From Shewanella putrefaciens (lineage in GTDB: Bacteria > Pseudomonadota > Gammaproteobacteria > Enterobacterales > Shewanellaceae): a stretch of DNA of 64,000 nt. The stretch lies in assembly GCF_016406325.1 (NCBI RefSeq), contig NZ_CP066370.1, positions 2,294,001-2,358,000 of the forward strand, in the 5' to 3' direction. The position numbers and the translations under genes were made by a program. This document shows, one piece after another, positions 52,825 to 57,323 of the stretch. The notes under the pieces were generated by a model, which was not told the DNA's origin, searched no databases, and saw only the letters and a list, made by a program, of their open reading frames with translations. Each line of letters begins with the position of its first letter. The stretch's first letter is position 1.

Positions 52825-54888
52825 ATGACTCACTTTTCAGCCCTAACGCCACCAGTCGTCAAAAATGGTACTCAAATGCAAACCCTATCCGCACTCGGTG
52901 GTGTTTGCCAAGCGGTCACACTCGCCAGCTTAGTGCGCCAACATCCAGGGACAACACTGCTTGTCACCAGCGACACGCCTAGCGCCTTAAGCTTAGAGTT
53001 AGAGCTCACCTATTTACTCGGTAAATGTGATATCAAGGTTCGGCTATTCCCAGATCGTGAGACCTTGCCCTATGACAGTTTCTCGCCCCATCAGGATCTG
53101 ATCTCTCAACGCCTAGAAACCCTGTCACAAATATCCCAAACCGAACACAGTGTGGTTATCGTCCCCGTCACCACTTTGATGATGCGCCTGCCACCTAAAG
53201 CCTATTTAAGCGCCAACGTTTTTGTACTTAAAAAGGGCGATAGATATCAATTACACAATGTACGCCAACATTTAACTGATACAGGTTACCACTTGGTGGA
53301 GCAAGTGTATGAACATGGCGAGTTTGCTATCCGTGGTTCGATTTTGGATATTTTCCCCACGGGCGTTAATATGCCGCTGCGCATCGAGCTATTCGATGAT
53401 GAAGTTGAGACCATTCGCCATTTCGACCCTGAAACCCAGCGTTCGTTACATCCTGTTGAGTCCATTCGACTATTACCGGCAAAGGAGTTTCCGACCGACA
53501 GCGCCGCCATTGAAGGATTTAGACAAAGATACCGCCGCCGTTTTGAAGTGATAGTCAAAGAGCCTGAATCGGTTTACCAATTGGTGAGTCGTAATCAAAT
53601 GCCCGCAGGGATTGAAAATTACCTGCCACTGTTTTTTGATGAAGTCGCCACCCTATTTGATTACTTACCCAAGGAGACTCAACTTGTCACCCTTGGGGAT
53701 ATTGAAAAATCCGCCCGAGCCCATTTACAGGAAGTCGAAACCCGCTACCAAGACAGACGTGTCGATCCACTGCGGCCACTGCTCGCGCCTAAAGAACTGT
53801 ATTTACTGATTGAAGAGCTATTTGCGGCATTTAAACCACTGCCGCGCTATCAGTTTATTTCGCCCACTACCGAGTCGGCAGAGACAGGTAAAGCCACAGT
53901 TATCGATGCTAATCAACTTCCCGATATCAGTGCGAATCACAAATTAAAGCAGCCATTACTCGCATTACAAGATTACGCCCAAAATGCACCGCGGATGCTA
54001 TTTAGCGCCGAGTCTGAAGGACGGCGCGAAGCCCTGCTTGAACTCTTAAGTAAAATCCAACTTAAACCCGCATTATTCAGCCATTTTGATGAATTTATTC
54101 AAAGTGATGCCAAACTGGGGCTTATCGTTTCGCCACTGTCACGCGGCTGTTTACTTAAGCTCAGTCCAAAAGATGCCGTGAGCATTATTTGTGAGACAGA
54201 ACTTTTTGGTCACCGTATCTCCCAGCAGCGGCGCCGGGAAAAACAGCGCCAGATCAGCAATGATGCACTGATTAAAAACTTAGCCGAACTAAAAGTCGGT
54301 CAACCCATAGTGCACCTCGAACACGGCGTGGCACTATACCAAGGCTTAGTGACCCTAGACACGGGCGGTTTAGTAGCCGAATACCTGCAATTAGAATACG
54401 CCGGTGGCGATAAACTCTATGTACCCGTATCGAACTTACACCTGATCAGCCGTTACAGTGTTGGTGCAGATGAAGACGCCCATCTCAATAAACTTGGCAA
54501 CGAGACGTGGGCTAAAGCCAAGAACAAAGCCATAGAGAAAATCCGCGATGTGGCAGCCGAACTGCTTGATGTTTACGCCCGTCGCCAAGCGCGTCCCGGC
54601 GAAAGTTGCCAGATTGACGAAGAGGAATATGCCCAATTTGCCCAAGGGTTCCCCTTTGAAGAAACCGTCGATCAAGAAAGTGCTATCCATGCCGTATTAG
54701 CAGACATGCGTTCCCCAATTGCCATGGACAGACTTGTATGTGGTGACGTGGGCTTTGGTAAAACGGAAGTCGCAATGCGCGCGGCCTTTGTGGCCGTCAA
54801 CGCAGGTAAACAAGTAGTTGTACTGGTGCCCACCACACTGCTTGCCCAGCAACACTATGAAAACTTTAAGGATAGATTCGCCGATTGA
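52825..54888 (+). CDS. mfd: Mfd N-terminal fragment (687 aa)
   Basis: Carries the UvrB-homology region (ETLPYDSFSPHQDLISQRLE, EHGEFAIRGSILDIFP), the RNA-polymerase interaction domain (VGQPIVHLEHGVALYQGL) and the first helicase motifs up to LVPTTLLAQQHYENF. It lacks the second half of the motor, so if made it could bind polymerase and UvrA-site surfaces but not translocate. Confidence 0.8.
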   Translation: MTHFSALTPPVVKNGTQMQTLSALGGVCQAVTLASLVRQHPGTTLLVTSDTPSALSLELELTYLLGKCDIKVRLFPDRETLPYDSFSPHQDLISQRLETLSQISQTEHSVVIVPVTTLMMRLPPKAYLSANVFVLKKGDRYQLHNVRQHLTDTGYHLVEQVYEHGEFAIRGSILDIFPTGVNMPLRIELFDDEVETIRHFDPETQRSLHPVESIRLLPAKEFPTDSAAIEGFRQRYRRRFEVIVKEPESVYQLVSRNQMPAGIENYLPLFFDEVATLFDYLPKETQLVTLGDIEKSARAHLQEVETRYQDRRVDPLRPLLAPKELYLLIEELFAAFKPLPRYQFISPTTESAETGKATVIDANQLPDISANHKLKQPLLALQDYAQNAPRMLFSAESEGRREALLELLSKIQLKPALFSHFDEFIQSDAKLGLIVSPLSRGCLLKLSPKDAVSIICETELFGHRISQQRRREKQRQISNDALIKNLAELKVGQPIVHLEHGVALYQGLVTLDTGGLVAEYLQLEYAGGDKLYVPVSNLHLISRYSVGADEDAHLNKLGNETWAKAKNKAIEKIRDVAAELLDVYARRQARPGESCQIDEEEYAQFAQGFPFEETVDQESAIHAVLADMRSPIAMDRLVCGDVGFGKTEVAMRAAFVAVNAGKQVVVLVPTTLLAQQHYENFKDRFAD

Positions 54889-54903
54889 CCCGTTGTCACA
54901 GAG

Positions 54904-56313
54904 GTGATGTCGCGATTTAGAACGGCAAAAGAACAAACCCAAGTGCTCAAGCAGCTGGAAGAAGGTAAAGTCGATATCGTTATCGGCACCCATAAGTTAC
55001 TGCAATCTGAAGCTAAATTTGAAAATCTCGGCTTACTGATCATTGATGAAGAACACAGATTCGGTGTACGCCAAAAAGAAAAAATTAAGGCGCTGCGGGC
55101 CAATGTGGATATTTTAACCCTCACAGCAACCCCCATTCCGCGAACCTTAAATATGGCCATGTCGGGCATGCGTGATTTATCTATTATCGCCACCCCACCC
55201 GCTAAACGCTTAGCCGTAAAAACCTTTGTACGCGAATCCGATCCCGCAACCGTGCGCGAAGCCATTCTGCGGGAAATTCTGCGTGGTGGCCAAGTCTATT
55301 ATCTGCATAACAATGTCGAAAGCATTGAAAAATGTGCCCAAGGGATTATCGACTTAGTGCCTGAAGCTCGCGTTGTCGTCGCCCATGGTCAAATGCGTGA
55401 ACGGGATCTTGAGCGTGTAATGTCAGACTTTTATCATCAAAGATTCAACGTGTTAGTCTGCACTACTATTATCGAAACTGGGATTGACGTCCCCAGCGCA
55501 AATACCATTATCATCGAGCGCGCTGATACCTTTGGTCTGGCACAATTACACCAACTGCGTGGTCGTGTAGGCCGCTCACATCATCAAGCCTATGCTTATT
55601 TGATGACACCACACCCCAAACGCATGACAAGTGATGCCCGTAAACGCCTTGAAGCCATTGATGCACTAGAAGATCTTGGTGCTGGATTTATGCTCGCAAC
55701 CCAAGATTTAGAGATCCGCGGTGCGGGAGAACTCCTTGGGGACGAGCAAAGCGGCCATATTTCCAAAATTGGTTTTAGCCTTTACATGGAAATGCTCGAG
55801 TCGGCGGTAAAAGCGCTTAAACAAGGCAAAGAGCCATCGCTTGCGCAAATGCTCAACCAGCAATGTGAAATCGAACTGAGGATCCCAGCGCTATTGCCTG
55901 AGGCCTATGTGAGCGACGTAAATATTCGCCTATCCTTATATAAACGCATTGCAGGCTGCGAAACCCAAGAGGCACTCGATGAATTAAAAGTCGAATTAAT
56001 TGATCGCTTTGGCTTACTGCCAGAGGCAACTAAAAACCTCATGGAAATGACGCTCTATAAACATCAAGCAACTCGCCTAGGGGCGACTAAAATTGAAGTA
56101 CACGCCAAAGGCGGCAGTATCGAATTTAGCCATGATCATGTGATAGATCCGGGTTTTATTATTGGATTACTCCAAAGCCAGCCACAAATCTATCGAATGG
56201 AAGGGCCGAATAAGTTAAAGTTCAGTCTTACTGCTGAAACAGCCAAAGATAGACTCGATGTAGTCAAACTCTTGCTTGAACAATTATCGCAACATCGTCT
56301 TGGAGATAAATAG
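54904..56313 (+). CDS. mfd: Mfd C-terminal fragment (469 aa)
   Basis: Same frame as the upstream fragment. It begins after the TGA with GTG-ATG at 54904-54909 and holds motifs II (LLIIDEEHRFG), III (LTATPIPRTLNMAMSGMRDL), V-VI (TTIIETGIDVPSANTIIIERAD, QLRGRVGRS) and domain D7. agagg lies only 2 bases from the start codons, so independent translation would be weak. Confidence 0.7.
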   Translation: MMSRFRTAKEQTQVLKQLEEGKVDIVIGTHKLLQSEAKFENLGLLIIDEEHRFGVRQKEKIKALRANVDILTLTATPIPRTLNMAMSGMRDLSIIATPPAKRLAVKTFVRESDPATVREAILREILRGGQVYYLHNNVESIEKCAQGIIDLVPEARVVVAHGQMRERDLERVMSDFYHQRFNVLVCTTIIETGIDVPSANTIIIERADTFGLAQLHQLRGRVGRSHHQAYAYLMTPHPKRMTSDARKRLEAIDALEDLGAGFMLATQDLEIRGAGELLGDEQSGHISKIGFSLYMEMLESAVKALKQGKEPSLAQMLNQQCEIELRIPALLPEAYVSDVNIRLSLYKRIAGCETQEALDELKVELIDRFGLLPEATKNLMEMTLYKHQATRLGATKIEVHAKGGSIEFSHDHVIDPGFIIGLLQSQPQIYRMEGPNKLKFSLTAETAKDRLDVVKLLLEQLSQHRLGDK

Positions 56314-57323
56314 TGTTACGTCAACTCGCGGTCTCTATCGCCACCCTCATTGCACTATCGCATAGCCAGTTAGCCCGCGCTGAGGCTTGGTTTGAAGTGG
56401 AAGTCTATATCTTCGAACGCAAAAGCCAATCAACCGAGCAATGGCCAGATACTCCCATAGCCACTAAGACGAATCGAGTCATTGACTTAATCTCACCCGT
56501 TGTCGGCCAAGCGGTGACACCAATGGCCACGGAGTCAGCACCTTGTACTTTAGTATTTGATGCTGAGGCCAATAGTCACTGTGCTGAAAACCTCAACACA
56601 GATGGCACCTCAAGCATCGATCCCTTAGCCAATATGTCAGATAGAGTAGAATACCGTTATCCCTCCGTGATACCCGCCCAAATTGGTAGCAATGGAACTC
56701 AATATGGCTCTGCAAAGGGAGAACCTATATTACTCTCGACGAGCCAAGGTAAGTTTTCAAGTATTATTAATAGCTTATCAAGGGAGCGGGGAAATCGCAG
56801 CCTATTACATATGACATGGCAGCAACCGATGCGTACTAAGAATGGCTCAGTGCCTATCCGTTTATTTGCGGGCAAAGATTTTTCAGGAACCTACCATTTT
56901 GACGGCCGAAAAATAGTGCAACAGGCTCTCAATGAGTCCATATCGAATACCAATGGCAGCACAGTGTCAGCACCGGCAATTTCCCCTGTATGGGAACTTG
57001 ATGGCACATTAAATATCTATCTTAACCACTATTTGTATATTGAAACGGCATTAAATTTACGTAAAGAAGGTAGAAAAATGTTACCCGCGCCGACGGACGA
57101 TGCGAATGTCAGTACGTCAGCTTCACTTACGGCCCCTAAGGTAATGACACCTTATTTAATGGCAATTCCACTTGAGCAAAATCGCCGAATCAAAAGTGAA
57201 GAAATCCATTATTTAGATCATCCCGAAATGGGTATGGTGATCCAAATACGTAAGATGGCACAACCAAGTGCCCAACAACAAAACCAAAATGCCGAATCGA
57301 TACAAACGGTTGGACAATATTAA
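56313..57323 (+). CDS. CsiV-family periplasmic protein
   Basis: A 336-aa exported protein: signal peptide LRQLAVSIATLIALSHSQLARA, then AWFEVEVYIFERKSQSTEQWP, the hallmark of the CsiV (peptidoglycan-binding, PF10972-type) family. The family supports peptidoglycan synthase activity in Acinetobacter-like bacteria. GTG start at 56313 overlaps the mfd stop, so it depends on translation through mfd or on an internal promoter; the mfd nonsense codon could therefore have polar effects. Confidence 0.75.
   Translation: MLRQLAVSIATLIALSHSQLARAEAWFEVEVYIFERKSQSTEQWPDTPIATKTNRVIDLISPVVGQAVTPMATESAPCTLVFDAEANSHCAENLNTDGTSSIDPLANMSDRVEYRYPSVIPAQIGSNGTQYGSAKGEPILLSTSQGKFSSIINSLSRERGNRSLLHMTWQQPMRTKNGSVPIRLFAGKDFSGTYHFDGRKIVQQALNESISNTNGSTVSAPAISPVWELDGTLNIYLNHYLYIETALNLRKEGRKMLPAPTDDANVSTSASLTAPKVMTPYLMAIPLEQNRRIKSEEIHYLDHPEMGMVIQIRKMAQPSAQQQNQNAESIQTVGQY

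What the first reader, a model, noticed from the sequence alone, without database searches (positions are those of the whole stretch)
54886..54888. mfd carries a single in-frame TGA at a conserved tryptophan
Seen directly: frame continuity is perfect across 1162 codons, with TGA at codon 688 between motifs Ia and II, and no other lesion. Comparison with the E. coli Mfd sequence I know (FANWPV) shows TGG to TGA as the simplest event. Lack of further decay means the change is recent, a sequencing error, or tolerated by readthrough (UGA followed by C). If real, the strain should lack transcription-coupled repair and the mutational effect of Mfd, and csiV, which overlaps the mfd stop, may be affected by polarity.
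Basis: partly seen in the sequence, partly recalled or inferred. Interest (0 to 1): 0.7.

Follow-up and report, generated by a model that had tools for sequence, protein, structure and literature searches.

The report
One-off stop codon in repair gene
In this Shewanella genome the DNA-repair gene mfd is cut in two by a single stop codon that its relatives lack, most likely a recent one-strain mutation or a sequence error, although the cell's only tryptophan tRNA has features that might let a little full-length protein be made.

Summary
Confirmed: mfd (52825-56313 +) has one in-frame TGA at 54886-54888 (codon 688 of 1162) and no other stop or frame break. It is private to this genome. In 93 of 96 other Shewanella genomes mfd is one open frame; two (G001, G049) break frame elsewhere and one is split by contig ends. 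All 38 near-identical database proteins have Trp there; one of them, held in 35 contigs, matches both halves exactly. So this is a recent private nonsense mutation, or a sequence or culture artefact. Selenocysteine and a changed code are not supported: no tRNA-Sec over cut-off, no UCA-anticodon tRNA found, and UGA ends 61 of 362 sampled genes. The 687-aa fragment lacks half the motor.

Both raise UGA reading in E. coli, so traces of normal Mfd are possible. Against strong readthrough, this tRNA is common in the genus and UGA stops are not rarer with it (108 of 671 genes) than without it (27 of 314). An ordinary pseudogene with one testable twist.

The parts
52825..54885 (+). mfd, part before the stop: 687 codons with UvrB-like, D3 and RNA polymerase-interaction domains and the first part of the DEAD domain
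54886..54888 (+). in-frame TGA at codon 688 of mfd; a Trp codon in 108 of 111 loci read
54889..56313 (+). mfd, part after the stop: 474 codons (rest of DEAD, Helicase_C, TRCF/D7) and the TAG stop
54904..54909 (+). in-frame GTG and ATG, 16 and 19 bases after the TGA; possible but weak restart sites (GAGG ends only two bases before the ATG)
   Evidence: restart itself is inference
56313..57323 (+). csiV (PF10972), GTG start on the last base of the mfd TAG, with GGAG a few bases upstream

Best explanation
A real, recent, strain-private nonsense mutation has made mfd a young pseudogene. Shown: one internal stop, otherwise intact frame, intact gene in relatives, no selenocysteine or code-change machinery found. 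Inferred: most ribosomes stop at codon 688 and release a 687-aa fragment that keeps the UvrA- and RNA polymerase-binding parts but has half a motor, so it cannot translocate, remove stalled RNA polymerase or couple repair to transcription. Also inferred: at most a small fraction of ribosomes insert Trp through the only tRNA-Trp and give traces of normal Mfd. Excision repair itself should remain (uvrA open).
For: Single stop in an otherwise intact frame. 93 of 96 other Shewanella genomes have one open frame over both halves. 38 of 38 proteins P0003-P0040 have Trp. None of the 120 listed proteins of 7993 hits has the cut length. No relaxed selection yet against S. profunda: pN/pS about 0.03 on both sides of the stop. 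A second private nonsense codon in a ketoreductase gene of the same genome, where 29 other loci have Gln codons, and a frame break in a gamma-glutamyltransferase-like gene show that mfd is not the only broken gene. Two other Shewanella genomes also have broken mfd frames (G001, G049), so loss seems tolerable.
Against: No reads are available. P0005, otherwise identical in both halves and held in 35 contigs, has Trp, which would also fit an error in this one assembly. The only tRNA-Trp has two features tied to UGA reading in E. coli, so loss may not be complete. The frame breaks of G001 and G049 may themselves be sequence errors.
Confidence: 0.56

Rival explanations
1. Sequence, assembly or culture artefact: the strain in nature has intact mfd and the TGA is a wrong base or a mutation fixed in one stored culture.
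For: A protein otherwise identical over both halves has Trp and is held in 35 contigs. Other private lesions occur in the 464 kb of this genome that I sampled: a TAA in a ketoreductase gene and a frame break at a run of C.
Against: The genome is one contig, 100% complete with 0.29% contamination; the mfd change is a substitution, not a homopolymer indel; the codon scan of 464 kb gave by eye only two internal stops, which is no unusual number of lesions.
Confidence: 0.25
2. Tolerated allele: the only tRNA-Trp, with A24 and an unpaired G27/A43, reads UGA-C as Trp often enough for useful amounts of exact wild-type Mfd.
For: The only tRNA-Trp found has CCA anticodon, U11-A24 and G27/A43. In E. coli G24A is the Hirsh UGA suppressor (PMC11805395, passages) and an unpinned top pair raised UGA readthrough about 2.5-fold on overexpression (PMC13092985, passages). 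UGA followed by C is rare among stops of this genome: 5 of 61.
Against: UGA ends 61 of 362 sampled genes here, and 108 of 671 in seven genomes with this tRNA type against 27 of 314 in six with the other type, the opposite of avoidance. The tRNA is common in the genus (37 of 97 genomes identical) yet no other mfd with TGA was seen. PMC13092985 also reports in vitro work in which the unpinned pair alone had no effect, and notes that native-level effects are unknown.
Confidence: 0.15
3. Split gene: translation restarts just after the TGA and the two fragments assemble into a working Mfd.
For: In-frame GTG and ATG lie 16 and 19 bases after the TGA, with GAGG just before them.
Against: The GAGG-to-ATG gap of two bases is short; these codons lie inside the conserved frame and so are no adaptation; the cut is inside the first RecA-like domain.
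Confidence: 0.03

Closest known systems
Strain-private nonsense pseudogene of a conserved, dispensable gene
   Same: One stop in an otherwise intact frame, relatives intact
   Different: Nothing, if the base is real; the gene is one of the widely conserved ones
Hirsh UGA suppressor (tRNA-Trp G24A of E. coli)
   Same: CCA anticodon and A24 paired with U11 (PMC11805395 passages)
   Different: Here A24 is the native state shared with many Shewanella, not a suppressor mutation, and UGA remains a normal stop
[quoted passage not shown]
   Same: Pair 27/43 open (G/A), seven-base loop, CCA
   Different: Also carries A24, so it falls among the tRNAs that paper set aside from its 'Blastocrithidia-like' class (section 18); Shewanella is not named in its main text
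Selenocysteine or UGA-Trp recoding
   Same: An in-frame TGA
   Different: No tRNA-Sec over cut-off, no UCA-anticodon tRNA found, UGA used as a stop

Membership tests
Mfd / transcription-repair coupling factor | UvrB-like, RNA polymerase-interaction, two helicase and TRCF domains in order | tested here: met
   on the two halves apart; searches align them to E. coli Mfd
Mfd / transcription-repair coupling factor | One continuous translated frame | tested here: not met
   TGA at codon 688
Nonsense pseudogene | Intact orthologue in close relatives | tested here: met
   93 of 96 genomes; 38 of 38 near-identical proteins
Nonsense pseudogene | Further decay or relaxed selection | tested here: not met
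   No other stop or indel; pN/pS about 0.03 on both sides against S. profunda; expected if recent
Nonsense pseudogene | No functional product | not testable with these tools
   needs protein or phenotype
Selenocysteine recoding | tRNA-Sec | tested here: not met
   15 weak matches, none over the cut-off; those examined are tRNA-Ser or tRNA-Arg
UGA reassigned to Trp (table 4 type) | UCA-anticodon tRNA | tested here: not met
   97 distinct tRNA genes, none UCA; the place list stopped at exactly 100, so a cap cannot be excluded
UGA reassigned to Trp (table 4 type) | UGA not used as a stop | tested here: not met
   61 of 362 sampled genes end in UGA
Programmed (conserved) readthrough | Same stop conserved in relatives | tested here: not met
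   TGA only in this genome among loci and genomes examined
4-bp anticodon-stem tRNA-Trp CCA | Open top pair 27/43 with CCA anticodon | tested here: met
   G27/A43, CCA
4-bp anticodon-stem tRNA-Trp CCA | Reads UGA as Trp at native level | tested here: inconclusive
   Only indirect: UGA stops are not rarer with this tRNA type; no direct measurement

The most novel reading that the evidence does not exclude
Much of the genus Shewanella translates with a tRNA-Trp that is by nature of a double UGA-reading type (A24 plus open 27/43 pair), so TGG-to-TGA changes in weakly expressed genes such as mfd are only partly harmful, and this mfd allele is a natural readout of that leakiness.
Probability: 0.13. 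Interest if true: 0.6.

Novelty: new member of a known kind. Interest (0 to 1): 0.28.

Why it matters
If the TGA is real and terminates, this is a natural strain without a widely conserved repair and mutagenesis factor; two other Shewanella genomes with broken mfd frames (G001, G049) suggest that such loss can be borne. If full-length Mfd is made in spite of it, the strain would be a native test of whether A24/4-bp-stem tRNA-Trp reads UGA at natural levels, a point PMC13092985 leaves open. Users of this genome as a species reference should know that the truncation is not typical of its relatives.

Tried and rejected
Selenocysteine and a changed code: not supported. A suppressor mutation special to this strain: rejected, since its tRNA-Trp is identical to that of 36 other genomes. 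Fewer UGA stops in Shewanella with this tRNA type: tested, not found, the trend is opposite (small samples, my own codon-score gene calls, not controlled for ancestry). Relaxed selection after the stop: not seen, but uninformative for a recent event. The first nonsense scan used a wrong threshold and found nothing, not even mfd, with another cut, gave 24 candidates, which I judged by eye from the printed contexts only; I checked just mfd and the ketoreductase further. The frameshift scan missed both control genes (L117, L118), so its count of frame breaks is a lower bound; of its four rows I followed only the one in L137. Papers: 'Shewanella putrefaciens' with 'mfd' gave 4 listings and 'mfd' with 'premature stop codon' and 'transcription-repair coupling factor' gave 6, none by title or start of abstract about such a strain; other listings were seen and not used beyond PMC6320318. 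The strain could not be named; the name S. putrefaciens is recalled, and the nearest named genome held is S. profunda DSM 15900 (94.4% over a 10.5-kb alignment).

Full report
Observation. mfd lies at 52825-56313 (+). Its frame has one internal stop, TGA at 54886-54888, after 687 codons, and goes on for 474 codons to TAG. Scanned apart, the halves hold the Mfd domains in order, and the stop falls inside the DEAD domain, between profile positions 70 and 80 of 167. E. coli Mfd (6x26) aligns to residue 674 before and from residue 677 after the stop.

Private to this genome. The window belongs to G000, one contig of 4,386,330 bases. With each half as query, 97 Shewanella genomes including G000 were searched. 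Of the 96 others, 93 carry mfd in one open frame over both halves (recounted from the listed open-frame lengths). G001 breaks frame near residue 247 of the second half, G049 near residue 507 of the first half, and G082 is split over contig ends. In loci L001-L111 the codon is TGG in 108, TGA in 2 (both G000) and TTG in 1; some species occur twice. In the protein search (7993 hits, best 120 listed) proteins P0003-P0040 are 99-100% identical over 98-100% of the query; all 38 have Trp, one of them (P0005, 35 contigs) is otherwise identical in both halves, and none of the 120 listed has the cut length. P0003 and P0008 end at 1053 residues through a frame change near the C terminus. The TGA is therefore recent, or an artefact of sequencing or culture.

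No decay. Against S. profunda DSM 15900 (96.0% over the gene, 140 mismatches, no gaps) 126 codons differ silently and 10 change sense, one being the TGA; pN/pS is about 0.03 before and after the stop. The Trp is near-invariant, not absolute: P. luteoviolacea has Leu.

Decoding machinery. No tRNA-Sec match passes the cut-off. The tRNAs in the fetched stretches number 97 distinct genes, none with UCA, and one tRNA-Trp, CCA (the place list stopped at exactly 100, so a cap is possible). prfB is present. The tRNA-Trp has U11-A24 and an unpaired G27/A43. In E. coli, G24A of tRNA-Trp is the Hirsh UGA suppressor (PMC11805395, passages), and opening the top pair raised UGA readthrough about 2.5-fold with the tRNA overexpressed (PMC13092985: abstract, passages and section 18). 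The same paper reports in vitro work in which the open pair alone had no effect, and that 4-bp stems go with lower UGA use in 13 of 19 orders. In one search the identical tRNA is in 37 of 97 genomes including G000; 73 of 97 have a full-length match of at least 94%, 18 only 83-86%, 1 a partial match, 5 none at E <= 1e-14 (counted by eye). In the Shewanella sequences read, 8 genomes have A24 with G27/A43 and 4 (the 86% type) have G24 with G27-C43. Over all copies held, non-Shewanella included: 39 A24 with G/A, 8 G24 with G-C, 3 others, of 50.

Does UGA leak? If this tRNA read UGA well, UGA stops should be avoided. On sampled stretches with codon-score gene calls, G000 ends 61 of 362 genes in UGA; seven genomes of the A24 type, G000 included, 108 of 671; six of the other type 27 of 314. 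The trend is against strong leakiness and is also opposite to the order-level trend of PMC13092985. The samples are small, ancestry is not controlled, and the type of G025, G053, G086, G091, G019 and G083 was taken from identity, not read. Among the 61 UGA stops of G000 the next base is T 28, A 17, G 11, C 5, which fits UGA-C being a disfavoured stop. For bacteria the passages read in PMC5289835 are mixed: +4C with readthrough in yeast and with the prfB frameshift site, +4A with tRNA-Trp misreading in E. coli.

Background of lesions. A codon-score scan of 464 kb (window plus 20 stretches) gave 24 candidates; by eye two are internal stops: mfd, and a ketoreductase gene in a fatty-acid-like cluster (L130 1849-1851), where the 29 other loci read have a Gln codon. 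A gamma-glutamyltransferase-like gene (name recalled from its motif, no family search made) breaks frame at a run of C (L137 near 11880). So mfd is not the only private lesion; this fits a strain with recent pseudogenes and equally a sequence with a few errors.

Mechanism. The 687-residue product would keep the UvrA- and RNA polymerase-binding parts but only half of the first motor domain; by the established picture of Mfd, ATP-driven translocation is needed to remove stalled polymerase and recruit repair, so loss of function is expected (inference). uvrA and mutS are open frames. [quoted passage not shown] csiV (PF10972) starts on the last base of the mfd TAG and has its own GGAG; 1.4 kb of untranslated message before it could lower its expression, but the promoter scan found no more sites than shuffles (6 against a mean of 8.3) and nothing here tests polarity. 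CsiV's part in PBP1A-dependent wall synthesis in V. cholerae is from PMC4063736 (passages).

Verdict. A private nonsense allele or an artefact, ordinary in kind, in a genus whose commonest tRNA-Trp makes limited UGA readthrough worth measuring.

Noticed in passing
L128 1501-1577 (G000:C1:3248375-3248451:-): The only tRNA-Trp found in this genome has A24 and an unpaired G27/A43; within Shewanella there are two tRNA-Trp types, this one and one with G24 and G27-C43.
   Followed up: partly
L130 1573-2316 (-): A ketoreductase gene beside ketosynthase- and dehydratase-like genes is cut by a private in-frame TAA at 1849-1851; the 29 other Shewanella loci read have a Gln codon there.
   Followed up: yes
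L137 near 11880 (-): A gamma-glutamyltransferase-like reading frame shifts at a run of C; relatives were not checked.
   Followed up: no
L117 (G049) and L118 (G001): Two other Shewanella genomes have mfd with a frame break, near residue 507 of the first half and near residue 247 of the second half; real or error unknown.
   Followed up: partly
P0003 and P0008: Two near-identical database proteins end at 1053 residues with a changed C terminus, losing most of D7.
   Followed up: no
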